Made by a program: the position numbers and the translations under genes. From assembly GCF_038561935.1 (NCBI RefSeq), contig NZ_CP102770.1:7936001-8000000 (forward strand): DNA of 64,000 nucleotides, in the 5' to 3' direction. Origin of the DNA: Myxococcus stipitatus. Lineage in GTDB: Bacteria > Myxococcota > Myxococcia > Myxococcales > Myxococcaceae. Shown in pieces: positions 31,762-53,554 of this stretch; the first letter of the stretch is position 1; each line of letters opens with the position of its first letter. The notes below the pieces were generated by a model. The model was not told the DNA's origin. It ran no database searches and saw nothing but the letters and a program-made list of their open reading frames with translations.

Positions 31762-32271
31762 TTACGGGTACCGGTCCACCACCAGGATGACGCCCGTGTT
31801 GTCCTGCACGACGGAGAAGCCCTTCATCGGGCTCGGGTACGCAACCAGTCCCTCGCCATCGCGGTCCCAGCGGGAATCCAGCAGGACGCCACAGAAGGGC
31901 ACCGACATGGCGCCGCTCTCCGGAAGGAAGACGCGGTCATAGCGGCCGAACACGCGGTGCTTCGTCACGAACAACCGCCCACCGATGCGCGCCCCCGGCA
32001 GCTTCGTCTCGCCCTCGTCCCGAGGCAGCGCAATCACGAAGCTGTAGTTGTACCGGGCCGGCCCCGGGTGGTCCTGGATGGCGTCCACGATGACGGGGAC
32101 CTTGTCCCCGGGCTTCAACCCCAGCCGCTCCATCTGGACGAGCGCGCCCTTGGGACAGGCGCCCTCGGGAGGCATCCACTTGGGCCGCTCGGGCTTCGCC
32201 GTCGCATCGTCGGTGTGCGCGCAGCCAGCCCCCGCCAGCAGCAGCACCGTCAACCATGGGGACATGCGCAT
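31762..32271 (-). CDS. Hypothetical lipoprotein downstream of tamA
   Basis: A 169-residue protein with lipobox GAGC (Cys 17), followed by a beta-rich domain with PGDKVPVIVDAIQDHPG, NYSFVIALPRDEGE and IGGRLFVTKHRVFGRYDRV. Three Cys remain in the mature chain including the lipid-bearing one (EGACPKG, PFCGVLL). No family recognised. It begins 13 bases after the stop of the TamA/Omp85 gene, so it is almost surely in that operon and might be an outer-membrane accessory lipoprotein, by analogy with Bam lipoproteins; that role is inference only. An ATG two codons in (32265) is an alternative start. Confidence 0.72.
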   Translation of the reverse strand: MRMSPWLTVLLLAGAGCAHTDDATAKPERPKWMPPEGACPKGALVQMERLGLKPGDKVPVIVDAIQDHPGPARYNYSFVIALPRDEGETKLPGARIGGRLFVTKHRVFGRYDRVFLPESGAMSVPFCGVLLDSRWDRDGEGLVAYPSPMKGFSVVQDNTGVILVVDRYP

Positions 32272-35200: not shown

Positions 35201-35461
35201 CAGCACCTGCCCCTTGTGCACCGCCACCAGCGCGCTCAACCCCTGCGCGTCCACTCCACCGGGCAGGTGCAGCTCCACGGCCACCACGTTCTGTCCGGAG
35301 ACACCCCTGGCGAGGTCCTGGGCGAGCGAGGGGCTCGAGCCCAGGACACACAACCAGAATCCCAGCACCACCGCGGTGGTGCGGGCTACTCGACCTCCCA
35401 GCTCAGCTTCAGCTCGAGCCCGAGGTTTCCAAACGAGGCTTCGCTGTTCTCGTTGTCCCAC
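32285..35461 (-). CDS. TamA/BamA-like Omp85 protein with about seven POTRA domains
   Basis: A 1058-residue outer-membrane beta-barrel assembly or translocation factor. After a signal peptide (ending SPSLAQD) there are about seven consecutive POTRA modules, marked by RLARLRFEGH, RVRQVSFSG, YQVRFHGN, RVSDVRFHGN, RVTEIRYEGV and KVGKVLVQGL (the first module is diverged). A 16-strand bacterial surface antigen barrel follows, with GGSSSLRGFREDGVLPEDV (the barrel-loop RGF motif) and C-terminal FHFSIGTF. E. coli TamA has three POTRA domains and BamA five. The ATG at 35461 overlaps tamB by 76 bases; GTG at 35371 would avoid the overlap but leaves no positive charge before the signal core. Placed directly after tamB, so most likely TamA. 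Confidence 0.9.
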   Translation of the reverse strand: MGQREQRSLVWKPRARAEAELGGRVARTTAVVLGFWLCVLGSSPSLAQDLARGVSGQNVVAVELHLPGGVDAQGLSALVAVHKGQVLTSGTVRRSVERLWATGRFSDVVARAEEVPGGVRVVFQLTPVSRLARLRFEGHAVMSDAELLEASGLLEGGPLDGEELEGAVSAVLQAYQRKGYDSVKVTARQEPVTDGVAVSLLIAEGQPTRVRQVSFSGSPGLPLSRLLAVLEMRPGEVFDRVRLDTGLDHLRTLLREEGYWRAQVGTPAVLVEANSASVAVPLSAGPKYQVRFHGNHRFSAELLQRVLAHDAAEPLDEVVAGRLARRVESFYRHRGFNDAKVRSREVVRPDGEVAVLAFDVDEGQSLRVSDVRFHGNNSLGSKTLRAHLAERIRASAQQPELDLRLQDDPLDVEGRHGREDVSLEPMPDPSTVYVEEAWLEATESMMEAYRERGFLSSTVTFRGLTVDARTRTAVADFDVEEGPQARVTEIRYEGVPEGMVALTQQGGAGVHKGLPLSFEAVEAARVSLERGLAQQGYLFAKVTTESSVGEDGTSATVVFRADAGPQVKVGKVLVQGLTRTDPDLVMANLDLEEGKPLAPDALLEGQRRLARLGLFRQVDVALADPARREPTKDVVVTVHERPRLDGQVSGGYFLVDGPRITLDTTYRNLDGLGLSLIARGKVNYAGWSAEALSADRRIACQQSGGAASAGCDVELQGLSGLGGRGNLALSQPRLFFLLPFEVGARLDLIAERVHRPSYVSTRFAAAAALDWAVTSWFNVSLSYEVENNRLRSRAGVLELLNRADQERLRYPFGDFALHSLRPSITLDFRDDPANPRKGLVLISSAELTRGISVAPTDVAGNAVPAFPINGVKLSSNLSGYIPLGRRASLALSARAGTIVPLETGAQTIGSKLFYLGGSSSLRGFREDGVLPEDVREALHQQLRDCRALISPSGCSGELKAVLAGQVPASQGGELFTLGKAELRLPALASVDLGLFLEAGNLWLDRTRMDLERLRYAAGVGLRYVTPVGPLAFDVGFNLNPDEEINEAQTQFHFSIGTF

Positions 35462-38400
35462 TGGGCCTGCGCGGAAAGTCGGTCGTCGAAGCGGTACTCG
35501 GCGCGCGCCCGCGTTCCGCGCCCACTCACCGGTTGAGTCATCCCGACTTTAAGCTGCTCGGAGAGGAACTTCGACTCCAGTTGCGCGGTGGGCTCCGCTT
35601 GTCGGGTGGCGTCGTTGTAGGTAGTGGAAATCTGGAGGGACAGGTCCCTCAACACCGGATTGCTGGGAAGGAACCGCTGGACCTGCCGGTCCAGCCCCGA
35701 GACGTTGAAGAGGGCCTCGGCCGCCAGCCCGGCCCCCGCCGAGGCCGCCGTCTCCCGGTCCGACGAGGTGAACCCCAGGGTGAGCAAGGAGACGATGTCG
35801 CCTTCCACCAGCGCCGGCTCCGAGGACAGGAGGATTTGCGGGTCCGAGGGCTTGCCGAAGGCGTGGAGCTTCACCACGTACTCGCGCACCTGCGTCTGGG
35901 CCTGGACCTCGAAGACGGGCTCCAGGCTGGACGCATCCTGGAACTCCATCTGCCCCTGGCTGATGGTGAAGGGGTTGTTGCGGAAGAACGCCTGGCTGCC
36001 CTCGGCCAGCTCCACCCGGCCCAGCAGCCCTGGCCGCAGGTCCGTCCCCGTCAGCCGGATGTCTCCGAGCATCCGCGCCTTGGCCAGGTTGTTGTCCACG
36101 CGCACGTCCCCGAAGTGGACGTTCACATCCCAGATGACCCAGGGCTTCTGCTGCTCGCCTGAGACACTGCTCGCCGCGGAGGACAGCGCGGGCGAGCGCT
36201 TCTGCATGGACTTGAGCAGCGCATCCACGTCCAGCGCCTTCTGGTAGCGCATCTTGACGATGTCCAGGCCGCCCGTGACGGTGAAGCCGCGCGGCGGCCC
36301 CACCACCTGGAGCAGTCCGGAGAAGGTCGCCGGCAGGTCCTCCGTGAGGCGGTAGGGTACCTCGTCCAACTGCACCGTGAGGCCCAACCGCTGAGGCAGG
36401 AAGCGCGCGAGCCGGATGTCGCCACGCGCGGAGATGCGGCCCTCGTTGAGCTGCCCCTGCAGGTGCTCCAGCAGCATGCGTTGACCCGTCAGCTCCGCGC
36501 GGGCCGACAGGTTGCGGATGTTCACGGGCATGTCCCGCATCGCCACGCGCACCTCCGCCAGCTCCGCGCTCCCCACCACCGACGGCGCGTCCAGCGTGCC
36601 CGTCGCCTCGGCATCCACGGTGACCCGCCCCGTGGCGCGCTCCACCATCGCCGGCGCGAGCGACTCCAGCAGGCGAAGGTCTCCACCTCCGCGAAGCGTC
36701 AGTCCGATGCCACCCGCCGTGGTCATCCACCCGCCCATGTTCAGGTCGACATAGGGCCCGTTGAATCGGAAGGGCTGAACGTCCAGCTTGCCCTTCTCGT
36801 AGGAGAGGAGGATGGGCGCGGCGTTCTCCCCCCGCACGTCGTGGCGGGACAGCACCAGCTTGTTCACCTCGGCGCGCAGGTGCGCGGACCGAGGCTCCAT
36901 CAGCGGCCCCTTCGCCGTCAGCGAGCCCGACACCGAGCCGGACACGCCCGCCCACAACGGCTCCGAGGGCAGCAACGGACGGATTTCCGGAAGCGTCAGC
37001 GACAACGTGGCGTCATAGGGCCACGTGTCCTGCACCTTCATCTTCACGCGGCCGTCGGCGTCCTGGAACGGCCGGCCCCACACCTCGAGGTCCTTGCCCA
37101 CCAGCCGTCCGGTGAGGTCCATGGCGCCGAGGTTCCGCTCCGCGAAGGTGACTCGCGGCGACTTCAACGTGACATCCACCACCGGGATATCCGAGGTGCC
37201 CGACACGACGCCATCCATCTCGAGCGTCCCCTGGATGCCCATGCGGCTCGCGACGTCCGGCCCCACCGTCTCCGCCAGCGACAGCTGGTCGCCACCAAAG
37301 CGGTAGTCCAGCCCGCCCGCGAACAACAGCGTGCCTTCCGCCCAGGTGCGCCCCAGCGGCCCTCGGAGCTCCGTGCGCTCGAGCACCATGGACTTGCCAT
37401 CCACGAACCGCAGCCGCGCCGAGCCATCCCCCATCCTGCGTCCGAAGTACGCGGTGTCCTTCACATCGAAGGCGACCAGTCCCTCCAGCCGTTCGACGGG
37501 GCTGTCCACTTCCACGCGTCCGGATGCGGTGCCCGTCAGCGTGCCCTGCATCACCGCGAGCGCTGGCGTCAGCCCCGCCACCACGTCCACCAGGTCCTCG
37601 GTGCGGCCCTGCGGGACGTTCACCTCGAGGCGCAGGTTGAGCAGACGCGCGAAGCCCACGGCGGCCTTGCCGAAGTACTGCGTGCGCCCCTTCTGGCCGG
37701 TGAAGGACGGGAAGGCCAGCACGCCATCGGAGTAGGTCAGCTTCCCCTGGAGCACGCCCATCGAGAAGCCCCAGAAGACGAAGTCGCGGAACGACAGGCC
37801 GGACTCCACCTTCACCTGCGAGGCCGGGCCGGTAATCGAGTACGTCGCATTCCCGCGCCCCGCCCACTTCAGCCCCGCGATGTGGCCGAAGTCCGCCAGG
37901 TCCAGGTCCCCCTGGCCGTGGATGTCCAACCCAAGCGCGCTCCCGAGGAGCAGCGCCACGTCGCCCTGCACCTTCGAGTGTCCCGCGTCCGCGGTGATGT
38001 GGTTGAAGGACACCCGGTCCGTCTGCAACCTCACCTGTGCCTGCGCACGTGCCCGGTCGAACTCGAGGATGGTGAGCCCATCCGTCGCGGGCGCATCGAA
38101 GGGCCGCGTCGCCAGCGTGAACTTCCCGGTGCGCAGGTCCAACGGTCCCGACAGCGAGAAGCGCGGCAGCAGGTTGCCGCTGAGCTGCGCATCGAGCGTC
38201 GCGGGGAAGTCCACCCACGCGCCCTCCACTCCCGCCTTGTCCAGGATGCGCCCCAGCGACGCGTCCACCGTCTTCACGCTCACCTCGAGCGGGAAGAGCG
38301 GCGTCAGCCCCAGCTTGCCGGTGACGCTCACCCGGCCCGCGCCCACCGGCACCGTCACGTCCTCGATTCGCACTTCATCGCCCGAGTACGACAGGCGCGC

Positions 38401-39318
38401 GGAGATGTTGGCGGGACCGAACCGGTCGTAGCCCAGGCCGTTGCCCGACAGCTCGAGCGACACCGCGGGCGCCTCGGGCTTGCCCGCGATGGACACGCGG
38501 CTCCACAAGTGACCCGTGGCCTGCTTCGGCAAGAGCTTCGCTTGGGACAGCGTGCGCATCGGCAGGAAGACCTGCGCGTCCAGCGCCAGGTGCGGCTGAC
38601 AGAGCGAGTCCACGCGTCCCGACACGGAGGTGCTGATGTCATCCAGTGACACCTCCGCTCGCTCCAGCTCCAGCAGCTCCTCGTCCGGGTCCAGGGCGCC
38701 CGCGATGGCGAGTCGCTGAAGCACCAGCTCCTGGCCGTTCGGGCCCAGGCGCACGAGTCCCCGGCGCGCCTCCGCGTCCAGCTCGATGGCGCCCCAGCGC
38801 TCCGTCCACCGCACGTCCAGGTCGGCGACCTCGACACGCCGTCCCTCGGGAAGCGCCAGCCGGAGCTCCGCGCCGGTGATGTCCAGCTTCGAAATCCGCA
38901 GGTGCTCGAGCGGCGCCAGGAAGCAGCCCTGCGACTTCTTCGAGGGCTCCGTCGACGGCCGCGACACATCCAGCGTCACCCGAGGCCGCTCGGCGCGAAC
39001 CAGGGCCAGGGACAGCCGGCCGGAGAAGGGCCGCAGGAACCCCAGCTGCACCTCCGCGGTGTCCGCCGCCACCAGCGGCGTGTCCTCGCCGGGAAGGAAG
39101 AGCGAGAAGCCATGCACCACGACGCGCGAGCCCAGCGGGTCCAGCTCACAGCGCCCGATGCCGACGTCCAGCCCGAGCACGTCCGGCAGATGGCGCCGGG
39201 CCATCGTGCAGGCCACTTCCCACGTCCCGGGCATGCGCAACGCCAGCACACTCCCCGAAATGACGAGGAGCACGAGCAGCAGCGCTCGAAGCGCACCCTT
39301 GCGGCTCTGCGTGGCCAA
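35386..39318 (-). CDS. tamB: TamB/AsmA-like lipid- or protein-transport bridge protein
   Basis: A 1310-residue protein with one N-terminal membrane helix (ALRALLLVLLVISGSVLAL) and a very long run of amphipathic beta strands typical of the TamB/AsmA-like bridge family. The C-terminal DUF490/TamB domain is clear: PGLLGRVELAEGSQAFFRNN, FTISQGQMEFQDAS, QTQVREYVVKLHAFGKPSDP, and a final ELKLSWEVE. TamB spans the periplasm and, with TamA, helps insert outer-membrane proteins; relatives carry phospholipid. By elimination the start is TTG at 39318, since a stop precedes it in frame and no ATG or GTG fits before the helix. It lies 5 bases after the ATPase gene and overlaps or abuts tamA. Confidence 0.88.
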   Translation of the reverse strand: MATQSRKGALRALLLVLLVISGSVLALRMPGTWEVACTMARRHLPDVLGLDVGIGRCELDPLGSRVVVHGFSLFLPGEDTPLVAADTAEVQLGFLRPFSGRLSLALVRAERPRVTLDVSRPSTEPSKKSQGCFLAPLEHLRISKLDITGAELRLALPEGRRVEVADLDVRWTERWGAIELDAEARRGLVRLGPNGQELVLQRLAIAGALDPDEELLELERAEVSLDDISTSVSGRVDSLCQPHLALDAQVFLPMRTLSQAKLLPKQATGHLWSRVSIAGKPEAPAVSLELSGNGLGYDRFGPANISARLSYSGDEVRIEDVTVPVGAGRVSVTGKLGLTPLFPLEVSVKTVDASLGRILDKAGVEGAWVDFPATLDAQLSGNLLPRFSLSGPLDLRTGKFTLATRPFDAPATDGLTILEFDRARAQAQVRLQTDRVSFNHITADAGHSKVQGDVALLLGSALGLDIHGQGDLDLADFGHIAGLKWAGRGNATYSITGPASQVKVESGLSFRDFVFWGFSMGVLQGKLTYSDGVLAFPSFTGQKGRTQYFGKAAVGFARLLNLRLEVNVPQGRTEDLVDVVAGLTPALAVMQGTLTGTASGRVEVDSPVERLEGLVAFDVKDTAYFGRRMGDGSARLRFVDGKSMVLERTELRGPLGRTWAEGTLLFAGGLDYRFGGDQLSLAETVGPDVASRMGIQGTLEMDGVVSGTSDIPVVDVTLKSPRVTFAERNLGAMDLTGRLVGKDLEVWGRPFQDADGRVKMKVQDTWPYDATLSLTLPEIRPLLPSEPLWAGVSGSVSGSLTAKGPLMEPRSAHLRAEVNKLVLSRHDVRGENAAPILLSYEKGKLDVQPFRFNGPYVDLNMGGWMTTAGGIGLTLRGGGDLRLLESLAPAMVERATGRVTVDAEATGTLDAPSVVGSAELAEVRVAMRDMPVNIRNLSARAELTGQRMLLEHLQGQLNEGRISARGDIRLARFLPQRLGLTVQLDEVPYRLTEDLPATFSGLLQVVGPPRGFTVTGGLDIVKMRYQKALDVDALLKSMQKRSPALSSAASSVSGEQQKPWVIWDVNVHFGDVRVDNNLAKARMLGDIRLTGTDLRPGLLGRVELAEGSQAFFRNNPFTISQGQMEFQDASSLEPVFEVQAQTQVREYVVKLHAFGKPSDPQILLSSEPALVEGDIVSLLTLGFTSSDRETAASAGAGLAAEALFNVSGLDRQVQRFLPSNPVLRDLSLQISTTYNDATRQAEPTAQLESKFLSEQLKVGMTQPVSGRGTRARAEYRFDDRLSAQAQWDNENSEASFGNLGLELKLSWEVE

Positions 39319-39323
39319 AGCCC

Positions 39324-40268
39324 CTAGAGCTTACCCAGCCCTTCGAGGTAGCGGTCTATCTCCGCCAGGTCGAGCTTGTTGTTCGACGCTCGGGGCAGAC
39401 GGGTCGCGGGGGGGCTTGCTCCCTCGGCCGCTCCTGGGGCAGCCGAGTTGATGCCCTGCAGTCCCAGGTTCTTTCCGATGCGATGCACCAGCTCCGCGGA
39501 GACCGTCTCCGCGCGCGCGAGGAACGCCTCGAAGAGGGCGTTGTCGCACAGGGTGTTGATGACACGCGGAGAACCGGACGAGTGCTCATGCACCGCCAGC
39601 AGGGCCTCGGGCGAGAACGGCATGCGCGGGCAGCCCGCGAGCCGGAGGCGGTGCTTGATGTAGGCCTCGGTGGACTCGGCGGTGAAGGGCTCGAGCTTGT
39701 AGCGCATGGCCACGCGCTGGGCGAGCGGCGGGTCCAGCTTCAGGTTCTTCTCAATCTCCGGCAGGCCGAAGAAGACGAACGAGATGAGCTTGCGCTCCGG
39801 CACTTCCAGGTTCAGCAGGCCGCGGAACTCCTCCATCAGCTCGCGCGTCTCCAGCATCTGCGCTTCGTCGATGAGGACGACGGCCTTCTTGCCGGACTCG
39901 TAGATTTGCAGGAGCCGCTGGTAGAGCTGCGACAGGAGCGCCAGCTTCTCCTGTGCGGGGTTCTCCACGCCCAGCTGCAGGGCGATGCGCCGCAGCAGCC
40001 AGTTGGCGGTGATGCCCGAGTGGATGATGACCAGCAGCGCGGCCTCGTACTCGGACTCGGGCAGCGAGTCGAGCATGCGGCGGGCCAGCGTCGTCTTCCC
40101 CGCGCCGATGTCGCCGACGAGGATGGACAGGCCCTTCATGTAGCTCACCGCGTGCATCAGCCGCGTGAGCGCCTGCGAGTGCTGCGCCGAGTTGTAATAG
40201 AACCGGCTCACGGGAGCGTTGGAGAAGGGCTCCTGCGTGAGGTCGAAGAAATCGAGGTAGGTCGTCAT
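39324..40268 (-). CDS. ExeA/GspA-like AAA ATPase
   Basis: Read from MTTYLDFFDLTQEPFSNAP the product is 314 residues. This start, with LTQEPFS followed by FYYNSAQHSQALTRLMHAV, is characteristic of the ExeA (GspA) family. Walker A GDIGAGKTTLARRML, Walker B KAVVLIDEAQML, sensor FVFFGLPEIEKNL and the arginine-finger area PPLAQRVAMRYKLEPF are intact. In type II secretion ExeA works with ExeB to place the secretin; here no ExeB, peptidoglycan-binding domain or membrane helix is fused. It lies between a TPR gene (24 bases) and tamB (5 bases), so it probably serves the same process. A Ser/Pro-rich linker leads to a short conserved-looking C-terminal helix, LDLAEIDRYLEGL. Confidence 0.88.
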   Translation of the reverse strand: MTTYLDFFDLTQEPFSNAPVSRFYYNSAQHSQALTRLMHAVSYMKGLSILVGDIGAGKTTLARRMLDSLPESEYEAALLVIIHSGITANWLLRRIALQLGVENPAQEKLALLSQLYQRLLQIYESGKKAVVLIDEAQMLETRELMEEFRGLLNLEVPERKLISFVFFGLPEIEKNLKLDPPLAQRVAMRYKLEPFTAESTEAYIKHRLRLAGCPRMPFSPEALLAVHEHSSGSPRVINTLCDNALFEAFLARAETVSAELVHRIGKNLGLQGINSAAPGAAEGASPPATRLPRASNNKLDLAEIDRYLEGLGKL

Positions 40269-40292
40269 GGGCTCGCCGGACCTCGGGGGCAA

Positions 40293-43200
40293 CTACACGT
40301 AACCGACCTTGCGCGCCTTGGGCGCGCCGGCCGCTGGCACCGGGGGATTCGCCACCGCCGCCGCGGGCGCGGCCCCATGGGCCTTGGAACCATTCACCGG
40401 AGCAGGCGCTGGCGTGGGCAGGGGGTCCTCCTCCGGCTGGGTACTGGCCGCGAGCCGGGAGACCTGCGCCCCCACGTCGCGGTACTTCGCATCCATCGCC
40501 GCCACACGCTGGTAGTGGTGCAGCGCCTTGCCGGGCTCGCCATGGGCCTCCCAGGCCACCGCCAGCTCGAAGCCCAGCGCCTTCGCCGCCTCACCCGAGG
40601 CGTGGGGACTCGCCAGGCCCTCGCGGAACGTCTCCACCGCCGCGCCCGCATCGCCGCGCAGCAGGTGCAGCATCCCCATCATCGTGACGCAATCCAGCTC
40701 GCGCTTCGTGCCGGTACAGCCCTGACGGGCCACCTCGAACTCATGGAGCGCGTCGTCCAGCAGGCCCATCTCCTTGTAGGCGATGCCCAGGTCGTAGTGC
40801 GTGTCCACGTCCTCGGGCTTCACCACCTTGGCCAGGCTCTTCTTGAACTCGGAGAACACCTCCTCCACCGAGTACTGGAAGTCCTCTTCCGCGGGCGCCG
40901 CCGCCGCGGTGTCGTCGCCCAGGTTGTCGATTTCGCCGGCCAGCTCCGCCGCCAGGTCGAACGCGTCCCGCTCTCCGGCCGACTCCGTCACCGGCTGCAC
41001 GGAAGGCACCGTGACGGGCGCCTGCTGCTCCTCCTCCGGCGCCGCGCCACCACTCGCCTCGAGCGCCTCCAGGCGCTCCATCAGCTCGCCAGCGCGAACA
41101 TGGCCCGGGAAGGCGATGGACACCGTCTCGAGGATTTCGCGGGCCTCTTCCAGGAGCCCCTGGTCCAGGAAGAAGGAGGCCTCGTCGCACTCCTCGGCCG
41201 CCGGCTCGTCCTCGCTCACCTCGTCGGTGACGGAGTCAGTCGGAGTCGGCTGCTCGGGCTCTTCCTCCGTCTCGGCCGACTCGAACGACGCGGCCGCGTC
41301 GAACGCGTCGGGCGACTCGAAGGTCTCCGCCGCGTCGAAGGAGGCCGCGGCCTCGGGCTCGTCCTCCACGGCCTCGAAGCCGGATGAGAGCTCGGGCTCT
41401 TCTTCCGAGCCGGTGTCATCCAGCGACACCACGGCGTGCGAGGCGGTGGGCTCCTCGTCCTCGAACTCGTCGCCCAGCGAGGGCATCTCGGAGCCCGGAG
41501 GGGCCTCCTCGAGGTCCTCCAACATCGAGGCATCCAGCGGAGCAATCCCCACCCGCGTGGGAATCTCATCCACGTCGAGCGACGCCTCTTCCACGAGCGT
41601 CTGCTGCTTGAACGTGGAAGGCGCGGCCTCGTCGAGCAACGCCCGCGTGGGCGCGCGAACCATCGTCGGAGGCGGCTCGTCCTCGTCGCCCAGCGACATC
41701 GCCGCCATCGACGCGGAGGTGGCCACGTCGTCCGAGTCGCCCAGCGACAGGCCCTCGTCACCGTCGAGCGACGCGCCCAGGTCGGCGGACTCCACCAGCG
41801 GCTCATCGTCCGAGGACATGAGGCCGGGCTCGTCCGTCAACACCATGCCGTCGTCGTCGCCGGACACGAGCATCTCGTCCATCGAGGCCGCCGCCATGTC
41901 CTCCGGCGGGGGCATCTCGAAGACGTCATGCTCTCCAGAGGTGATGGCCTCTCCGACGAGTGCTTCCTCGCTGACGACGGAAGCCTCACCCGCATCGTCG
42001 ATGACTTCGTCCGACTCGCTCGACGGCAGCGTCGCCAGGGCCAGCTCGTCCCCCGGCGGATGCAGGAGCGCGTCCTCGGGAGGCGGGGCGACGAGCACTT
42101 CGTCGTCGCTCGAGTCGACGAGGATGGCGTCCTCGCCCACCGACTCCACCGCCACCGACGACGGCGCCACCGACACCGGCCCTTCCACGCGCAGCACTGA
42201 CAAGAAGGCCGGCACCTCGGGATGGGCGGGGTTCTGCTGGAGGATGGTCGCGAGGTAGGGCTGCGCGCGCGTCGAGTCCGCGGCGCGCGTGCACAGGCGC
42301 AGCACGTTCAGCAACTGCTCGGACGCCTGCGCGGCGTTCCCCGACGCGACGTAGATTTGGTACGCCTTCTCGTGCGCGTCCAGGTTCTCCGGGTCGACGG
42401 AGAAGATCTTCCGCAGGTGCTCCAGCGCTTTGTCGTGGAGCCCGTACTTCACGTAGACGTCGGTCTCCGTGAGCAGCTTCGCCAGCTGCTCGCGAGCCAA
42501 TCCCGCGGGCTGCGGAGGCGGCGGCGCGATGGGCTGCGGCGCGGCGACGGGAGCAGGCGCGGGCTGGGGCGCGGCGCGAGCGGCCGGCTGGGGCGCGGGC
42601 TGCGCCATGGGCTGCGGCGCGGCGGGAGCAGGCGAAGGCGCGGGAGCGCGGCGGGCGAGCAGATCCGGGTCCTGGGGATCCAACACCTCGATCTGCGTCC
42701 AGACGGCCTCGGCCTCCGTGAGACGGCCGCGCTCCTGGTGAATCTTGGCGAGCTCCTTGTAGACGGACACCGTCTTGGAGGTCTGGCCCAGCCCCTGGAA
42801 GGCCTGGGCCAGGAGCGACAGCGTCTCCACGTCGCGGCCATCCGCCTTGAAGCACACCTGCAGCTTCGCCAGCGCGCGCTTCTGGTCTCCTCGCTGCAGG
42901 TACGAAGTGGCCAGCTCCTTGGCCAGCGGCAGGTTGTCCGGCTCGAGCGTGGACAGGCGCTCCGCTACGCGGGCCCAGTCCTCGCCTCGGCTGTTGCGCT
43001 TGAGGTACTCGGCGGCGCGCTTGAACTCCTGGACCGCCTCGCGCGTCATGTTCTCGCGCGCGTACAGCTCGGCCAGCTTGATCTTCGACGCCACGTTCTC
43101 GGGGTCGAGATCCACCATCTTCTTCAAGGTATCGAGCGACGCCTTCGTGTCGCCCGCCTTGTCGTAGTGGTTGGCGACGATCTGGAAGTACGCCATCGCC

Positions 43201-43526
43201 TCCGACATCAACCCCAGCTGCTGGTGCAGCTCCGCCAGCTTGAGGTTCACCTCGAGCAGGTTCGGGTTGAGCTTGAGGACCTGCTTGTAGAGGGCAACGG
43301 CCTTGAGGAAGAAGCCGTCCGAGGAGTAGCTCTCCGCAACCTTGGTGAAGAAGTGCGCCGCCTGGGCGTTGTCGTTCTTCTTCTGGTACAGCTCCCCCAT
43401 CTTCTGGAGCACCCGGATGTCCTTCGGGTCGACCTCCAGGACCTTCTGGTACTCCTTGATGGCCTTGTCGTACGCGCCCTTCGCGACCAGCTTCGCGGCG
43501 GCTTCGATGATCTTGTTCTTGTCCAT
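40293..43526 (-). CDS. Large TPR protein with a long acidic linker
   Basis: From MDKNKIIEAAAKLVAKGAYDKAIK the protein is 1077 residues. The first ~310 residues are tandem TPR units (AYDKAIKEYQKVLEVDPKD, FLKAVALYKQVLKLNPNLL, AGDTKASLDTLKKMVDLDPE). A Pro/Ala/Gln-rich stretch (~315-360) and a further TPR block (to ~450) come next. Roughly 400 residues of acidic low-complexity sequence rich in Asp, Glu, Ser and Pro follow, then a C-terminal TPR domain (about 800-1040), which begins EASFFLDQGLLEEAREILET and recalls FimV C-terminal repeats. No signal peptide or membrane helix, so it is probably a cytoplasmic scaffold. The GC-heavy start region upstream was excluded because it lacks TPR character. 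First gene of the TPR-ATPase-tamB-tamA unit, 193 bases after accC. Confidence 0.83.
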   Translation of the reverse strand: MDKNKIIEAAAKLVAKGAYDKAIKEYQKVLEVDPKDIRVLQKMGELYQKKNDNAQAAHFFTKVAESYSSDGFFLKAVALYKQVLKLNPNLLEVNLKLAELHQQLGLMSEAMAYFQIVANHYDKAGDTKASLDTLKKMVDLDPENVASKIKLAELYARENMTREAVQEFKRAAEYLKRNSRGEDWARVAERLSTLEPDNLPLAKELATSYLQRGDQKRALAKLQVCFKADGRDVETLSLLAQAFQGLGQTSKTVSVYKELAKIHQERGRLTEAEAVWTQIEVLDPQDPDLLARRAPAPSPAPAAPQPMAQPAPQPAARAAPQPAPAPVAAPQPIAPPPPQPAGLAREQLAKLLTETDVYVKYGLHDKALEHLRKIFSVDPENLDAHEKAYQIYVASGNAAQASEQLLNVLRLCTRAADSTRAQPYLATILQQNPAHPEVPAFLSVLRVEGPVSVAPSSVAVESVGEDAILVDSSDDEVLVAPPPEDALLHPPGDELALATLPSSESDEVIDDAGEASVVSEEALVGEAITSGEHDVFEMPPPEDMAAASMDEMLVSGDDDGMVLTDEPGLMSSDDEPLVESADLGASLDGDEGLSLGDSDDVATSASMAAMSLGDEDEPPPTMVRAPTRALLDEAAPSTFKQQTLVEEASLDVDEIPTRVGIAPLDASMLEDLEEAPPGSEMPSLGDEFEDEEPTASHAVVSLDDTGSEEEPELSSGFEAVEDEPEAAASFDAAETFESPDAFDAAASFESAETEEEPEQPTPTDSVTDEVSEDEPAAEECDEASFFLDQGLLEEAREILETVSIAFPGHVRAGELMERLEALEASGGAAPEEEQQAPVTVPSVQPVTESAGERDAFDLAAELAGEIDNLGDDTAAAAPAEEDFQYSVEEVFSEFKKSLAKVVKPEDVDTHYDLGIAYKEMGLLDDALHEFEVARQGCTGTKRELDCVTMMGMLHLLRGDAGAAVETFREGLASPHASGEAAKALGFELAVAWEAHGEPGKALHHYQRVAAMDAKYRDVGAQVSRLAASTQPEEDPLPTPAPAPVNGSKAHGAAPAAAVANPPVPAAGAPKARKVGYV

Positions 43527-47590: not shown

Positions 47591-50302
47591 TTAGAGGCTC
47601 TGCGCGATGGTCTGCCGGTTGAGAATGCGGGGCGTGATGAAGATGAGCAGTTCCTGTCGGTCATCCGACTCCACGGTCTGCTTGAACAGCAGCCCCAGCA
47701 CCGGAATCTTCGACAAGAAAGGCACCGAGTTGACTCGGGAGGACCCGCGGCGAACGTAGATACCGCCGATGACCGTGGTGTCTCCATCCTTGACCAGCAC
47801 CTGGGTGTTCGCCTCCTTGCGCTGGATGGCCGGCTGACCATTCGAGCCCGTGCTGGACGCGTCAGGCTGGTTGTTGGAGGCCGTGATGGCCATCAGCACA
47901 CTGCCGTCCTGGGTGATGTGCGGCGTCACTTCCAGCGACAGGCGGGCTTCGACGAAGGTCGTGTTCACACCACCCGCGGAGACCTGACTGAACGGGATGG
48001 AGAGCCCCTGGCTGATGCGCGCGGTATTGTTGTCCAGCGTCGTCACACGCGGGGCGGAGATGGTCTTGACGCTGCCTTCCTGTTCCATCGCGGAGAGACG
48101 CAGGTTGAGCTGCAGTGCACCTCCCGCGGAACCAAAGGTGAAGCCCAACGCACCACCGAGGCCCGCCGTACCACCCGCCGAAGGCAGGTTCACCGCGAAG
48201 TTCGGCACACCCGGGAGACCCGCGGCGGTACCCGCCGCACCACCCGTGATAGCGACGTTGTTGGGGAAGATGAGGCCCGTCGGGTTGCCCGAGGCCTGGG
48301 AGAGACGCGCCTGCCCGCCCCACTGCACACCAAGGTCACGCGTGAAGTTGGTGCTCGCCTCGACGATGCGGCTCTCGATGAGCACCTGCGGCGTCTGCGT
48401 GTCCAGGCTCCGAACCAGCGCGCGCGCCTTCTCCGTGTTGGCCCGCACATCCTTGACGATGAGCACGTTGGTGCGCGTATCCACGGTCACGGAGCCACGC
48501 TCGCTCAGCACGTCCTTCACCCGCGCCGACATGTCGCCAGCAACCGCGTAGTTCACCGGGATGAGGTTGACCATCAAGTCCTCCTGCTGCTGGAGGGACT
48601 TCTTGCGCTCCTGGCGCAGACGGGCCTCTTCTTCCAGGGTCTTCAGCGGAGCGATGCGGATGATGTTGCCAAACTCCTCCTTGCCCAGCTGCTTCGTACG
48701 CAGGATGAGGTCCAGCGCCTGGTCCCAGGGGACGTTGCGCAGACGGATGGTGACTCGGCCGCTCACGTCGTCGGCGACGACCACGTTCTTCTTGGAGATC
48801 TCCGCGATGACCCGCAGGAGGTTCTGGATGTCGATGTCCTTGAACTCGAAGGAGACGCGCTTGCCACGGTAGCGAGCCTGCTGCGGCGCACCCTCGGCGG
48901 CGTAGGCGGGCGCCTCGGCGGTGAAGCCGGCGGTGCGCTGGGCCACGGCCACCTCATCCGTCTTCACACCCTTCACATCCAGCCGCCACGACAGCGTGCC
49001 GCCGTTCTGGGTGACCTTCTCGTCGATGGCGCCATCCGCGGCGACGACCACGCGAACCTTGCGGCTCTCGCCCGGGACACTGAAGGCGCTGATCATCTTC
49101 ACCGGCGTCTCGAGGGCGCTGGTGTCCAGGCTGCGCTCCAGCTTCTTGGGCAGCCGGGCGTTGTCCAGCGTCAGCACCGCGCTGCGGGGGTCGGGCCGGT
49201 CCACCTTCCACGCGGCCGTACCCGTCAGCTTCAGCACCACGCGACCACCCGCCCCACCCTCCTGGAAGGACAGGTCCTTGACCTCCACCACGGACGCGGT
49301 GACGGGAGCCTGGGCCTCGACGGGCTCAGGCGCGGCGCGCATGGGTTCGACCTCGGCCACGGACGCGACGGCCTCTTGCGGCGCGGGCGACGGCGCGGCC
49401 TTGCGAGCCACCGCGCTCCCCAACACCACTTCCAGGCCCTTGTCCGCGCGATCCACGCGGTAAGCCGGCATCTTGCCGCGCACATCCAGCACCAGCCGGA
49501 CCTTGTCTGAGTGGGCGCCCACTCGCACTTCGCGCAGCGTCGCGCCGTTCACGCGAGGCGCACGGGCCGCCAGGCCCACGCCGTAGAGGTCCACCGCAAG
49601 GCGCGGCGGGTCCGCCAGCTCCAGCACCTCGTAGCGGGCGATGTCGCCGTCCGCGCGGATGCGCAGCGTGTCGTCGGCGTAGGCCAGCTGGGTGATGCGC
49701 TGGGCAGGGTTGGCCACCTCACGCTCGTCGGCCTCGGCCGCGACCACGTTCTCCGGCATGACCGGCTTCGTGGAGGGCTCAGCGGCCTTCACCTGCGGCA
49801 CGGCCTCCGCCACCACGGCGGCGGGCTTGCCGACGGAGGGAGCCGCAAGGGCCGTGGCGACCGGCGCCGGGGAAGGCTCGGCCAGCTTGGCCTCGGCGCC
49901 ATCCACGGAGATCACCACGCGATTGCCGTCGGCCCGAACGTCGTACTGGGACGCCTTGTCGAGCGCCAGCAGGACCCGGCCCACGCTCGCGCGTTCGTCC
50001 GAGAACTGCGACGCCACGACTCCGGCGACGGGACCCGAGCCGTCGTGATGCCCCTTGATACCCGTCGCATCCGCCGACGAGAGGTCCACCACCAATCGCT
50101 CCGGGCTGCTCAGCCGGAACACGGTGAAGGTAGGAGGCCGGGTTCCGGTCACCACCACCTGGGCACCGGAGCCCGTACGGGACACCGCGACATCCCGCAA
50201 CGTATTCAGTTCAGCGCCAGACACCTCGGCGCCCGCAAGGACGGCCACGAATACGGCCGCCAACATCCACTTGCCCCTCGTCACAGCGCTCCTCTCGAGC
50301 AT
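47591..50302 (-). CDS. pilQ: Type IV pilus secretin PilQ
   Basis: A 903-residue outer-membrane secretin through which the pilus passes. A signal peptide (ending VSGAEL) is followed by three AMIN domains that bind peptidoglycan (around AELNTLRDVAVSRTGSGAQV, ITQLAYADDTLRIRADGDIA and VVEVKDLSFQEGGAGGRVVL). Next are the N0 domain (RVSFEFKDIDIQNLLRVIAE, NVPWDQALDLILRTK) and the N1 domain (NYAVAGDMSARVKDVLSERG). The secretin core has VLIESRIVEASTNFTRDLGV and the C-terminal VPFLSKIPVLGLLFKQT with LLIFITPRIL. Three AMIN domains fit the myxobacterial form. The ATG at 50302 has AGGGG upstream; a GTG at 50317 is also possible. Fifth gene of pilMNOPQ. Confidence 0.96.
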   Translation of the reverse strand: MLERSAVTRGKWMLAAVFVAVLAGAEVSGAELNTLRDVAVSRTGSGAQVVVTGTRPPTFTVFRLSSPERLVVDLSSADATGIKGHHDGSGPVAGVVASQFSDERASVGRVLLALDKASQYDVRADGNRVVISVDGAEAKLAEPSPAPVATALAAPSVGKPAAVVAEAVPQVKAAEPSTKPVMPENVVAAEADEREVANPAQRITQLAYADDTLRIRADGDIARYEVLELADPPRLAVDLYGVGLAARAPRVNGATLREVRVGAHSDKVRLVLDVRGKMPAYRVDRADKGLEVVLGSAVARKAAPSPAPQEAVASVAEVEPMRAAPEPVEAQAPVTASVVEVKDLSFQEGGAGGRVVLKLTGTAAWKVDRPDPRSAVLTLDNARLPKKLERSLDTSALETPVKMISAFSVPGESRKVRVVVAADGAIDEKVTQNGGTLSWRLDVKGVKTDEVAVAQRTAGFTAEAPAYAAEGAPQQARYRGKRVSFEFKDIDIQNLLRVIAEISKKNVVVADDVSGRVTIRLRNVPWDQALDLILRTKQLGKEEFGNIIRIAPLKTLEEEARLRQERKKSLQQQEDLMVNLIPVNYAVAGDMSARVKDVLSERGSVTVDTRTNVLIVKDVRANTEKARALVRSLDTQTPQVLIESRIVEASTNFTRDLGVQWGGQARLSQASGNPTGLIFPNNVAITGGAAGTAAGLPGVPNFAVNLPSAGGTAGLGGALGFTFGSAGGALQLNLRLSAMEQEGSVKTISAPRVTTLDNNTARISQGLSIPFSQVSAGGVNTTFVEARLSLEVTPHITQDGSVLMAITASNNQPDASSTGSNGQPAIQRKEANTQVLVKDGDTTVIGGIYVRRGSSRVNSVPFLSKIPVLGLLFKQTVESDDRQELLIFITPRILNRQTIAQSL

Positions 50303-50359
50303 GCGTCCCCTCACCACAGTTGGAAGCGGGCTGCCGCCCGCGGGCGCGCCTAAGGGGCG

Positions 50360-50920
50360 CTACTCCCCGAAGTTTTTGCCGGTCATCAGATTGTAGCTAG
50401 GGTCCAGCTTGTCATCCGGCTTGAGCTGCAAGGTCACCGGGTTCTTGATGATCTCTCCGTTGCCCGAAAACACCTCGGTCACCGTCATCGAGTCGCGGAG
50501 AATCTGCGTGACCTTGCCACCCTGGCGCCCCACGCGGGTGTTGCGGCGCACGATGTGGCCTCGACCCTGCGGGTCTTCGACCATGGCAAGTGGATTGGCG
50601 TCCCCCGTGACGACCGCAACCAGCTTGAGCTGGTCGAGGTCGAACGCGCACAGGGGCTCGGTGCAAGTCGTCACCGGATTGGGCTGACCCGACTGATTCA
50701 GCTCCTCGAGCGGGCTCCGGAACGGGTCACGCTTGCCCACCGGATTGTACGAATAGACGTAGGCCGGAGCAGCCATGGCCTCGACGGCCGCCGCGGTCTC
50801 CGCAGGCGCAGCGGGAGCAGGCGCCGGCGCCGCGCGAGCAGGCGGAGCGGGAGGCGGCTCTTTCTCGCATGCAGCGAGCGTCAGCGCGAGCGCGGCAGTC
50901 GTCATTGTGGCCTTGAACAT
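50360..50920 (-). CDS. pilP: Type IV pilus alignment lipoprotein PilP
   Basis: A 186-residue inner-membrane lipoprotein with lipobox LAAC, a Pro/Ala-rich linker and the HR domain: YNPVGKRDPFRSPLEELN, LCAFDLDQLKLVAVVTGDAN, MVEDPQGRGHIVRRNTRVGR, KVTQILRDSMTVTEVF. It links PilN/PilO in the inner membrane to PilQ. Two ATGs are six bases apart; the second (50920) has GAGG at proper spacing. Small gaps (57 and 49 bases) separate it from pilQ and pilO. Confidence 0.94.
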   Translation of the reverse strand: MFKATMTTAALALTLAACEKEPPPAPPARAAPAPAPAAPAETAAAVEAMAAPAYVYSYNPVGKRDPFRSPLEELNQSGQPNPVTTCTEPLCAFDLDQLKLVAVVTGDANPLAMVEDPQGRGHIVRRNTRVGRQGGKVTQILRDSMTVTEVFSGNGEIIKNPVTLQLKPDDKLDPSYNLMTGKNFGE

Positions 50921-50969
50921 CTTCATCCTCAATCCCCTTGTCGCCCTACTTTCCGGACGGATCAAGTTT

Positions 50970-51551
50970 CTATTTCTTGGTCTCGACGAACCGGAAAGTC
51001 GTCGCCAGGAAGCTGCTCTGCAGGACGACCTTCTCGTTCTTGAGAGTCGGCTGTCCCAGGTTGATGTTGTTGACGTTCACGATGCGGCGCATGTTCGCCA
51101 TCTCCTGCAGGAACATGGCGATCTCGTGATAGTTGCCCCTGACCGTCATGCGGATGGGGATGCGCGCGAAGAACTCGCCGCCTCCGACGTACTCACGATC
51201 CGGTTGGACGAGGGCAATCTCGAGGCCGCTCTTCTTGCCGATGTCGTTGATCTGCGCGAGCAGCTCCTCGACGTCCTTTCGCTCCGGCAGCTCCGTGAGG
51301 GCCTCGGCGAGCTTCTGCTCCAGCACGTCCATCTCGCGCCGCCGCTCGTTGAGGTTCTGCGCGATGGCGCTCTTCTCCGCGAGGTCCAGGTCCAGCTTGC
51401 GCCGCTGGCCGACCTGGATGCGAATCCGGTCCTCCGTCGGCTGAATGAAGAAGAAGAAGTTGGCGGCGGTCATCAGGGCGATGAGCACGGCCAGACCACC
51501 GAACTTGGCGCCCGGGGAGGCCTTGGCGAATTGATCCAGGTACTTGTCCAT
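50970..51551 (-). CDS. pilO: Type IV pilus alignment protein PilO
   Basis: A 193-residue bitopic protein: MDKYLDQFAKASPGAKFGGL, then a membrane helix rich in Phe (LIALMTAANFFFFIQPTE), a coiled coil (RIRIQVGQRRKLDLDLAEKS, RRREMDVLEQKLAEALTELP) and a ferredoxin-like periplasmic domain (DIGKKSGLEIALVQPDREYV ... IRMTVRGNYHEIAMFLQEMA). It pairs with PilN in the alignment ring between motor and secretin. Twelve bases separate it from pilN. Confidence 0.95.
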   Translation of the reverse strand: MDKYLDQFAKASPGAKFGGLAVLIALMTAANFFFFIQPTEDRIRIQVGQRRKLDLDLAEKSAIAQNLNERRREMDVLEQKLAEALTELPERKDVEELLAQINDIGKKSGLEIALVQPDREYVGGGEFFARIPIRMTVRGNYHEIAMFLQEMANMRRIVNVNNINLGQPTLKNEKVVLQSSFLATTFRFVETKK

Positions 51552-51563
51552 GGCGAGCCTCGG

Positions 51564-52247
51564 TCAGATGGCGTAGTTCGCTTTGAGGGTGATCTTGAAG
51601 TCGACCAGCGATGGGGCACTCGTCGGTCCGCTCGAGGACTTCGTCTGGACCGCGCTGGTCAGGTCGATGTTGGTGAAGAACGGAGTGATTTCCCCGCTCG
51701 GGAACTCCTCGACCGTGGCCTCCGCCGTCAACATCTCCACACGGGACGTCTTCGACTCACGGCGATGATCCACCAGGCGGCCCATGCCCTTGGGGGTCCA
51801 CACCACACCGTTCAAAGCGCGCATGAACTCCGCGACCTCATCGTGGCTGACCGCCGAACCATCGATGGACACCGCGTTGCTGGACTCGACGAAGGTCTTC
51901 ACCCAGACCTTCTTCGGGGTGGCGGAGGCCAGCGCGTCCATCATGCGAACCGGACCATTGCGCCCCTTGCGAAGCGCATCGAGCACGGCGAGCTTCTTCT
52001 CGACCTCGGTCTTGCGGGCGTTGATGTTCTTCACCTCGCCAATGACCTTTTCCAACTCGGCGATCTTCGCCTGCGTCTGGGCGATGGCCTGCGCGTTGCG
52101 CTGACGCTCGGATTCCCGGTCGTCGTACCAGACGTAGTTGCCCACGGCGGCGCCCAGGAACAGCACGCCGAAGAGGACGAGAGTCGTCTGACCCTTCTTC
52201 TTGGTCTGCGTCTTCCGGACAGGAAGCAGGTTGATGCGAATCATCAT
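51564..52247 (-). CDS. pilN: Type IV pilus alignment protein PilN
   Basis: A 227-residue bitopic protein beginning (M)MIRINLLPVRKTQTKKKG. INLLP is the conserved cytoplasmic tip that docks into PilM. A membrane helix (LVLFGVLFLGAAVGNYVWY), a coiled coil (QAIAQTQAKIAELEKVIGEV) and a periplasmic domain (PKKVWVKTFVESSNAVSIDG ... FMRALNGVVWTPKGMGRLVD) follow. Two adjacent ATGs exist (52247 and 52244); GGAG lies nine bases before the first. Between pilM and pilO. Confidence 0.95.
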   Translation of the reverse strand: MMIRINLLPVRKTQTKKKGQTTLVLFGVLFLGAAVGNYVWYDDRESERQRNAQAIAQTQAKIAELEKVIGEVKNINARKTEVEKKLAVLDALRKGRNGPVRMMDALASATPKKVWVKTFVESSNAVSIDGSAVSHDEVAEFMRALNGVVWTPKGMGRLVDHRRESKTSRVEMLTAEATVEEFPSGEITPFFTNIDLTSAVQTKSSSGPTSAPSLVDFKITLKANYAI

Positions 52248-52275
52248 GTGCGTCGTCTCCAAGAAGTGGACGGTC

Positions 52276-53358
52276 TCAGGCCAGCTTGTCGCCCGGACGC
52301 CTCAGCGCCAATCCCACGGCCACCGCGGCCATGGGCGCCACGTCCATGATGAACGCGGGGTCGAACTTGCGGTTGTCCACGTCGATCTTGCGGAACGGAT
52401 TGAGGATCTCGACCGGCACGCCGGTGCGCGCCTCAATGGTCTTGAACAGGGCGGGAATCTTCGCCGTGCCACCGGACAGGTAGACCTTGGTGAAGTTCGA
52501 GTCCGCCGCCGTGCCGGCGTAGAAGTCCAAGGAGCGCTGGATTTCGCCGGCCACCTGCTCGGCGACGCTGGAGAGCACGCGCTCGACCTCCTGAGGAACG
52601 ACGGCGTCCGCGTCCGCACGGTTGCCGCCGATCTTCAGCGCCTCCGCCTCCTCGTAGGAGACGTTGAGCTGCTTCTGGATCTCTTCGGTGAACTGGTTGC
52701 CACCGATGGTGACATCACGGGTGAAGACCGTCACGCCGTTGGCGATGATGTTGATGTTCACCACCGATGCGCCCGCGTTGATGAGGACGACGGTCTCCTT
52801 CTCCGGCAGGTCGTAGTTGACGGAGAACATGTTCTGGACGGCGAAGGCGTCCACGTCCACCACCACCGGCGCGAGGCCCGCCTCGGAGACCACTGTGGTG
52901 TAGTCGTTGATCATGTCCTTTTTGGCCGCGACCAGCAGCACATCCATCTGACCGGTGGCGTCGTTGCCGCCCCCGTCGAGGATCTGCGTGTCGATGTTCA
53001 CGTCCTTCACGTCGAAGGGGATGTACTGCTCGGCCTCCCACTGGATGCTCTCCTCGAGTTCCTCCTGGGACATGCGCGGCATCTGAATCTTCTTGATGAT
53101 GACCGAGTGGCCGGACACGCCGATGGCGACGTCCTTGCCCTTCACCTTCAGCTCGGACATCAGCTCCTGGACGGCCTGGACGATGGCCGTGGAGTTCATC
53201 AAGGCGCCGTCGACAATGGCCTCCGGAGGCAGCGGCTTCATGCCGAAGCTCTGCAGCGCGAAGCCCACTTCGCCACGCTTGCGCTGCTCCTTGAGCAGGA
53301 TCATCTTGATGGAGGTCGATCCGATGTCCAGACCGAGTGCCAGTTTGCCCTTCGCCAT
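52276..53358 (-). CDS. pilM: Type IV pilus actin-like ATPase PilM
   Basis: A 360-residue cytoplasmic actin-fold protein that sits beneath the inner membrane and binds the PilN tip. MAKGKLALGLDIGSTSIKMI (phosphate-1 loop), SMAGSTI-type region AIGVSGHSVIIKKIQMPRM, ESIQWEAEQYIPFDVKDVNI, VVLINAGASVVNINI (phosphate-2) and VYLSGGTAKIPALFKTIEAR (adenosine motif) are intact. The ATG at 53358 has GGAG seven bases upstream; the longer in-frame extension is antisense noise. First gene of the pilMNOPQ run, 196 bases after the response-regulator gene. A promoter was not resolved here. Confidence 0.96.
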   Translation of the reverse strand: MAKGKLALGLDIGSTSIKMILLKEQRKRGEVGFALQSFGMKPLPPEAIVDGALMNSTAIVQAVQELMSELKVKGKDVAIGVSGHSVIIKKIQMPRMSQEELEESIQWEAEQYIPFDVKDVNIDTQILDGGGNDATGQMDVLLVAAKKDMINDYTTVVSEAGLAPVVVDVDAFAVQNMFSVNYDLPEKETVVLINAGASVVNINIIANGVTVFTRDVTIGGNQFTEEIQKQLNVSYEEAEALKIGGNRADADAVVPQEVERVLSSVAEQVAGEIQRSLDFYAGTAADSNFTKVYLSGGTAKIPALFKTIEARTGVPVEILNPFRKIDVDNRKFDPAFIMDVAPMAAVAVGLALRRPGDKLA

Positions 53359-53498
53359 GCTTGACTCCGTCGAGAGGCAGCCAGCGTAGCACTGGCCGTC
53401 AACCCCTCCTAAAAAGTGCCCGAAGCCCGCCTGCTCGCCGCCCGGTCGGGACCCCTGCGATATCTGCTGCGCCAGGCCCCCCACCACGGTCGCGGAGG

Positions 53499-53536
53499 CC
53501 CGATTTTCCGGCCCCGGACGCATTCCGTCAATCGGG
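53499..53536 (-). terminator. Possible hairpin between pilR-like gene and pilM
   Basis: CCCGATT (53499-53505) and AATCGGG (53530-53536) pair, with an inner GACGG/CCGTC-type arm, right after the stop of the response-regulator gene on the minus strand. It could separate the pilD-S-R transcript from pilMNOPQ. There is no clear U-run. The rest of the 196-base gap holds no gene. Confidence 0.32.
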
Positions 53537-53554
53537 GGCCCACAATCTTCCAGG

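What the first reader, a model, noticed from the sequence alone, without database searches (positions are those of the whole stretch)
39324..43526. Cytoplasmic TPR scaffold and ExeA-like ATPase in one operon with TamB and TamA
Four leftward genes lie 24, 5 and -76 bases apart: a 1077-residue TPR protein with a ~400-residue acidic linker, a GspA/ExeA-type AAA ATPase, TamB and a 7-POTRA Omp85 protein. A lipoprotein follows 13 bases later. TAM is usually described as needing no dedicated cytoplasmic ATPase. A soluble AAA ATPase and a TPR scaffold tied to TamBA suggest an energised or spatially controlled outer-membrane assembly or lipid-transport system. It is the best candidate here for an undescribed system. 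The layout is seen; the joint function is inferred.
Basis: partly seen in the sequence, partly recalled or inferred. Interest (0 to 1): 0.8.

Follow-up and report, generated by a model that had tools for sequence, protein, structure and literature searches.

The report
SgmX tail-docking ATPase beside TamB operon
The four-gene operon is real and already published, but its ATPase appears to be a partner of the cell-pole and pilus regulator SgmX, recognising a short conserved tail on SgmX, rather than a motor for the TamBA outer-membrane system.

Summary
The layout is confirmed: SgmX-like TPR protein, ExeA/TnsC-type AAA+ ATPase, TamB and a BamA/TamA-type Omp85 protein, leftward, spaced 24, 5 and -76 bases. 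The TPR gene is not unknown: it is SgmX, the MglA effector that activates type IV pili. The operon (MXAN_5766-5763) and its Bdellovibrio counterpart are published, and deleting the three downstream genes has no motility effect. The reading of an ATPase that energises TAM is not supported. Across Myxococcota the ATPase is never next to TamB without SgmX. In Desulfuromonadales, Nitrospirota and other phyla the same ATPase sits directly after an SgmX-like gene in most loci, and in none of 63 beside TamB. New here: these TPR proteins end in a conserved hook ([KR]x[VI][GS][YF][VLIM]-COOH) that is present where the ATPase is and absent where it is not. All 13 inferred changes of the tail fall on branches where the ATPase also changes. 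The ATPase model resembles MuB and TnsC, AAA+ regulators known to bind a partner's flexible C-terminal hook. Best explanation: a dedicated AAA+ partner of SgmX that docks on its tail; TamBA is a lineage-specific neighbour. Binding is inferred, not shown.

The parts
40293..43526 (-). sgmX: TPR / acidic linker / C-terminal TPR protein, 1077 aa
   Evidence: NCBIfam NF052243 T4PFormProtSgmX 1976 bits (cut-off 1800), full length
40452..40889 (-). SgmX C-terminal TPR domain (the MglA-GTP-binding region in M. xanthus SgmX)
   Evidence: Query used; function from PMC7668184
40296..40313 (-). SgmX C-terminal hook R-K-V-G-Y-V-COOH
   Evidence: Conserved only where the ATPase is present; background 4 of 8840 ORFs, all four of them partner fragments beside the ATPase
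39324..40268 (-). ExeA/TnsC-type AAA+ ATPase (MXAN_5765 orthologue), soluble, 314 aa
   Evidence: PF13401 83 bits; TIGR03015 194 bits, under its cut-off of 324.5; AF2 model pLDDT 89.8
40092..40115 (-). Walker A GDIGAGKT
   Evidence: G60, G63, G65 and K66 invariant in 48 homologues
39864..39878 (-). Walker B VLIDE
   Evidence: D142 and E143 invariant
39810..39836 (-). Signature helix MEEFRGLLN after Walker B; candidate part of the tail-docking surface
   Evidence: E154, R157, G158 and N161 invariant; all changed in the three divergent ATPases whose SgmX lacks the tail
39327..39368 (-). ATPase C-terminal helix (DLAEIDRYLEGLGK) after a variable linker
   Evidence: Alignment; model helix 309-321
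35386..39318 (-). tamB
   Evidence: PF04357 173 bits
32285..35461 (-). Omp85 (TamA/BamA-type) with POTRA domains
   Evidence: PF01103 and PF07244; over the BamA cut-off, under the TamA cut-off
31762..32271 (-). small predicted lipoprotein, possibly the last gene of the operon
   Evidence: 13 bp after the Omp85 gene; no family
47591..53895 (-). pilQ-pilP-pilO-pilN-pilM cluster upstream
   Evidence: Pfam Secretin/AMIN, PilP, PilO, PilN, PilM_2

Best explanation
The first two genes form the working module: SgmX, the MglA effector that switches on polar type IV pili, and a dedicated soluble AAA+ ATPase of the ExeA/TnsC/MuB type. The ATPase most likely docks on the C-terminal hook of SgmX ([KR]x[VI][GS][YF][VLIM]-COOH), which hangs on a flexible linker just behind the MglA-binding TPR domain, and uses ATP-dependent assembly or remodelling to tune how SgmX binds MglA, clusters or leaves the pole. 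tamB and the Omp85 gene joined this pair in Myxococcota and do separate envelope work. Shown here: gene identities, synteny, and strict co-distribution of hook and ATPase in three phyla. Inferred: physical docking (about 0.75) and the direction of regulation (open).
For: SgmX identity. The TPR gene lies immediately upstream of the ATPase in most non-Myxococcota loci, with no TamB in any of 63. Myxococcota genus representatives: the four-gene order is the commonest, SgmX-ATPase without TamBA in 7 loci, SgmX-TamB-Omp85 without ATPase in 6 loci, ATPase-TamB without SgmX in none. Hook versus ATPase orthologue: Myxococcota 55 with both, 7 with neither, 3 with a divergent ATPase and no hook, 1 exception; Desulfuromonadia 15 with both, 45 with neither, no exception, and those 45 genomes hold only paralogues at about 32-40% identity, against 60-78% in the five ATPase-positive controls; Nitrospirota 30 with both, 27 with neither, 1 exception (one of the 30, L272, has a single ambiguous base in the hook). 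On a tree of 233 C-domains made without the hook, all 13 tail changes fall on branches where the ATPase also changes. Background of the motif is effectively nil. The hook persists where the ATPase is unlinked (G013, G165, G189, G192, G194). One natural TPR-ATPase fusion lacks the hook (L175). The ATPase model matches MuB and TnsC best, and its profile finds TnsC among solved proteins; in that family a flexible C-terminal hook of TnsB docks on TnsC and the MuA C-terminus acts on MuB (PMC9371665).
Against: No physical interaction was tested. Inactivating MXAN_5765 has no S-motility phenotype (PMC7668184), so the ATPase is not needed for SgmX's main job in the laboratory. Two genomes keep the hook without a neighbouring ATPase (G110; L274, where the ATPase was not sought elsewhere). 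The supported-branch sign test has few pairs: 5 same, 0 opposite, 1 unchanged, p 0.0625; 4 same, 0 opposite, 2 unchanged in the larger set. G166 and G167 have the ATPase but only a weak SgmX-like protein without hook, and G187 has the ATPase with a degenerate tail; these weak matches were left out of the tree.
Confidence: 0.72

Rival explanations
1. The ATPase and SgmX energise or position TamBA: cytosolic ATPase activity is coupled through SgmX to the TamB N-terminus to drive polar outer-membrane assembly or lipid transfer (the first reader's idea; a polar TPR-TamAB complex was proposed for Bdellovibrio by Milner 2014).
For: The four-gene order is conserved through most Myxococcota families examined. 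TPR-TamB-TamA are co-transcribed in Bdellovibrio and TamA there is reported essential (PMC3983030).
Against: ATPase and SgmX-like gene travel without TamBA in other phyla; SgmX-TamB-Omp85 survives at least four ATPase losses; ATPase and tamB inactivation leave S-motility intact.
Confidence: 0.1
2. The conserved tail is not a docking peptide but a by-product of the ATPase gene's translation start: the last sgmX codons carry its ribosome-binding site or coupling signal, so the tail is conserved only when the ATPase gene follows.
For: In many loci the sgmX stop and the ATPase start nearly touch, and Lys/Arg/Asp codons can encode a Shine-Dalgarno-like sequence.
Against: The tail is kept where the ATPase gene is elsewhere in the genome (G013, G165, G189, G192, G194) and where the gap between the open frames is 60-240 bp. 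Conservation peaks at the final residues [GS][YF][VLIM], which do not encode purine-rich DNA.
Confidence: 0.08
3. Tail and ATPase share a third partner (for example a pilus base, polarity or proteolysis factor) and are lost together without touching each other.
For: Co-loss shows functional, not physical, coupling. SgmX is a hub that binds MglA, FrzS and SopA (PMC11580455).
Against: Operon adjacency over several phyla, a natural fusion, and the MuB/TnsC precedent favour direct contact.
Confidence: 0.15

Closest known systems
SgmX (MXAN_5766) / MglA type IV pilus activation in M. xanthus
   Same: Window TPR protein is an SgmX equivalog (1976 bits); same four-gene operon MXAN_5766-5763.
   Different: The papers read report no motility role for the ATPase and do not mention the C-terminal hook or its link to the ATPase.
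Bdellovibrio Bd2492-Bd2494-Bd2495 (TPR-TamB-TamA) operon
   Same: TPR gene followed by tamB and an Omp85 gene; the TPR protein is polar and binds MglA (PMC3983030).
   Different: No ATPase gene between them, and a much shorter TPR protein (353 aa).
MuB / TnsC AAA+ transposition regulators
   Same: Closest folds (Foldseek E 8.6e-10 and 2.0e-9) and closest solved sequence relatives (VchTnsC, E 2.6e-6); a partner's flexible C-terminal hook docks on the AAA+ protein (TnsB-TnsC).
   Different: The partner here is a TPR polarity protein, not a transposase; no transposon genes were seen beside the operon; DNA binding unknown.
ExeA/GspA and XrtA/PEP-CTERM ATPase (TIGR03015)
   Same: Same AAA+ family by profile (194 bits).
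   Different: Under the TIGR03015 cut-off (324.5); no transmembrane or peptidoglycan-binding part; not in a secretion or exosortase locus.
TAM (TamA-TamB)
   Same: tamB and an adjacent Omp85 gene.
   Different: The Omp85 protein scores as BamA, not TamA, in NCBIfam; the ATPase is not a TAM part in other genomes.

Membership tests
SgmX | Full-length match over the NCBIfam equivalog cut-off | tested here: met
   NF052243 1976 vs 1800 bits, profile positions 1-1065 of 1065
SgmX | Gene context with the pil cluster and tamB | tested here: met
   pilQPONM upstream, tamB downstream
SgmX | Binds MglA-GTP and activates type IV pili | not testable with these tools
   Shown for the M. xanthus orthologue (PMC7668184, PMC7519303)
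XrtA/PEP-CTERM ATPase (TIGR03015) | Score over the curated cut-off | tested here: not met
   194.1 vs 324.5 bits
ExeA/GspA | C-terminal transmembrane and peptidoglycan-binding region | tested here: not met
   314 aa; after residue 275 only a disordered linker and one short helix
MuB/TnsC-type AAA+ regulators | AAA+ fold of the MuB/TnsC type | tested here: met
   Foldseek hits 8xvb (MuB, rank 1) and 7rzy (TnsC, rank 3), TM about 0.6; ORC/Cdc6 and RuvB-like folds score nearly as well
MuB/TnsC-type AAA+ regulators | Located in a transposon and acts on DNA | not tested
   Neighbours seen are polarity, pilus or housekeeping genes; DNA binding not testable
MuB/TnsC-type AAA+ regulators | Partner docks by a C-terminal hook | tested here: inconclusive
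   Strict co-distribution of hook and ATPase; no binding assay
TAM | TamB C-terminal domain (PF04357) | tested here: met
   173 bits, cut-off 22.4
TAM | Omp85 partner is TamA | tested here: not met
   TamA model 81 of 625 bits; BamA model 305.6 over 297

The most novel reading that the evidence does not exclude
A MuB/TnsC-type AAA+ regulator has been adopted in several phyla as a cell-polarity or pilus regulator. It binds a C-terminal hook of the SgmX-family MglA effector and, through an ATP-dependent ring or filament, gates MglA binding and polar clustering, so pole switching has an unrecognised AAA+ layer.
Probability: 0.35. Interest if true: 0.8.

Novelty: new variant of a known kind. Interest (0 to 1): 0.62.

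Why it matters
SgmX is the central switch for polar pili in Myxococcus, yet the gene right behind it has been set aside as without motility phenotype. The co-loss pattern indicates that this ATPase and the last six residues of SgmX are one functional unit across three phyla, which makes its role directly testable with a six-residue deletion. It also corrects an appealing but unsupported idea of a cytoplasmic motor for TAM, and would extend the hook-on-AAA+ principle from transposition to cell polarity. Re-reading published SgmX truncations matters too: the gain-of-function mimB allele, explained by loss of TPR12-14, also removes the hook (inference from its reported stop at position 859).

Tried and rejected
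Phage relatives of the ATPase: none. PDB relatives by single sequence: none; only the profile found TnsC. A common third gene beside the pair outside Myxococcota: neighbours are housekeeping genes (mutL, miaA, radA, thiD), with no TAM or pil genes among the shared ones. A first regular expression for the SgmX C-domain was too strict; reading those outputs revealed the conserved tail. One apparent exception, L159, resolved as a TPR gene split into two frames whose downstream piece carries the tail. Searches with full-length SgmX or its family model over genomes failed, so its C-domain was used. MglA presence was probed only with the Arf model, a weak proxy. The hypergeometric P treats branches as equal and the tree as exact; it is not used as a formal test.

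Full report
Observation. The four leftward genes are present with the stated spacing. They are a 1077-residue TPR protein with an acidic linker, a 314-residue AAA+ ATPase, TamB and an Omp85 protein, followed by a small lipoprotein-like ORF. The type IV pilus genes pilQ-P-O-N-M lie upstream.

Identity and prior knowledge. The TPR protein is SgmX: NCBIfam NF052243, 1976 bits against a cut-off of 1800, full length. In M. xanthus SgmX is an effector of the polarity GTPase MglA and is essential for polar type IV pili; its three C-terminal TPRs bind MglA-GTP (PMC7668184; PMC7519303). The operon MXAN_5766-5763 is named as a putative four-gene operon in PMC7668184. Milner 2014 (PMC3983030) compared it with the Bdellovibrio TPR-TamB-TamA operon and noted MXAN_5765 as a putative Sec-system ATPase inserted between. 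Inactivation of MXAN_5765 or 5764 had no effect on S-motility, and PMC11580455 states that deletion of MXAN_5763-5765 has no impact on T4aP-dependent motility. So the system is not undescribed, and the ATPase is the part without a proposed role.

Which genes belong together? In Myxococcota the ATPase is matched in 169 of 195 genomes (a few of these matches are paralogue-level), the SgmX C-domain in 163 of 193 and TamB in 180 of 193. In genus representatives the full order SgmX-ATPase-TamB-Omp85 is commonest. SgmX-ATPase occurs without TamBA in seven loci (G002, G009, G011, G018, G182, G183, G185). SgmX-TamB-Omp85 occurs without the ATPase in six loci (G110; G045, G046, G047; G161; G058), which lie in four families. 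ATPase-TamB without SgmX was not seen. SgmX and ATPase are both present but unlinked in G013, G165, G189, G192 and G194. Outside Myxococcota, a scan of named genomes gave the same ATPase, at about 50-57% identity to the window protein, in Desulfuromonadales, Nitrospirota, Methylomirabilota and others. An SgmX-like TPR gene lies directly upstream in most of these loci, and TamB lies beside none of 63. The other shared neighbours are housekeeping genes. The two-gene TPR-ATPase module is therefore the widespread unit, and the ATPase-TamBA link was found only in Myxococcota in this survey. Bdellovibrio has the TPR-TamBA link without the ATPase (PMC3983030).

A conserved tail. Reading the partners' ends showed a near-invariant C-terminus, [KR]x[VI][GS][YF][VLIM]-COOH, for example KKDRVSYL, RKIGFV and, in the window, RKVGYV. 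Among 8840 other ORFs from the fetched loci only four match, and all four lie directly before the ATPase as fragments of the TPR partner (L149, L159, L165, L169; with positions).

Natural experiments. Myxococcota: 55 loci with ATPase and tail; seven without ATPase and without tail; three (G158-G160) with a syntenic but divergent ATPase (27-30% identity) and no tail; one exception, G110, with tail but no ATPase. Desulfuromonadia: TPR C-domain in 114 of 117 genomes. Of 60 fetched, 15 have ATPase and tail and 45 have neither. Those 45 genomes contain only paralogues at about 32-40% identity, while five ATPase-positive controls give 60-78%. Nitrospirota: 30 with both, counting L272 whose tail has one ambiguous base, 27 with neither, one (L274) with tail and no adjacent ATPase (here the ATPase was sought only next to the gene). 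On a tree of 233 C-domains, from which the tail was left out, the tail changes 13 times and each time on the same branch as the ATPase; the ATPase changes 15 times, the two others being single tips. Limits: the domain is short, and only six independent pairs rest on well-supported branches. In these the tail goes the same way in five, the opposite way in none and is unchanged in one (four, none and two in the larger set), which cannot reach p 0.05. The tail is kept in genomes where the ATPase is unlinked, which argues against a pure translation-start signal.

Fold and mechanism. The AF2 model of the ATPase is confident (pLDDT 89.8). After residue 275 there is a disordered linker and a short C-terminal helix. 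Among the closest solved folds are MuB and TnsC, with ORC/Cdc6 folds close behind, and TnsC is the only sequence relative in the PDB. For this family a published structure shows a 15-residue flexible C-terminal hook of TnsB docking on TnsC, and the MuA C-terminus acts on MuB (PMC9371665). Of 72 strongly conserved ATPase positions, 18 are changed in all three divergent ATPases, and seven of these lie in the helix MEEFRGLLN after Walker B, a candidate docking surface. A natural TPR-ATPase fusion without the hook occurs in one metagenome-assembled genome (L175); an assembly artefact cannot be excluded. The most likely mechanism is docking of the ATPase on the SgmX hook, next to the MglA-binding domain, with ATP-dependent tuning of SgmX. 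Docking is inferred; the direction of regulation is unknown, and the lack of a laboratory motility phenotype suggests a modulating role.

Verdict. The layout is confirmed and already known. The proposed ATPase-TAM coupling is not supported. A new and testable SgmX-hook/AAA+ partnership is proposed.

Noticed in passing
window 46523-46885: Small protein whose relatives recur at the same place between the pilQ and accC/sgmX homologues in myxobacterial loci; from memory the position fits MglC (roadblock protein). Pfam gives no match.
   Followed up: partly
window 32285-35461: The Omp85 protein beside TamB passes the NCBIfam BamA cut-off and fails the TamA one.
   Followed up: partly
G000:C1:8833758-8834846 (L002): A second, longer TamB-domain protein (about 1815 aa frame) elsewhere in the genome.
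   Followed up: no
L088, L089, L102 (G158, G159, G160): Syntenic but fast-diverged ATPases that keep key Walker residues but changed the MEEFRGLLN helix; their SgmX lacks the tail.
   Followed up: partly
L175:1434-4535: Single open frame joining the TPR protein and the ATPase (Candidatus Desantisbacteria MAG), without the tail.
   Followed up: partly
window 39327-39368: The ATPase ends in a conserved amphipathic helix (DLxEIDRYLxxL) after a linker of very variable length; present in Myxococcota and Desulfuromonadales, absent in Nitrospirota.
   Followed up: partly
L080, L081, L072 (G189, G192, G013): Unlinked ATPases with very long linkers before the same C-terminal helix.
   Followed up: no
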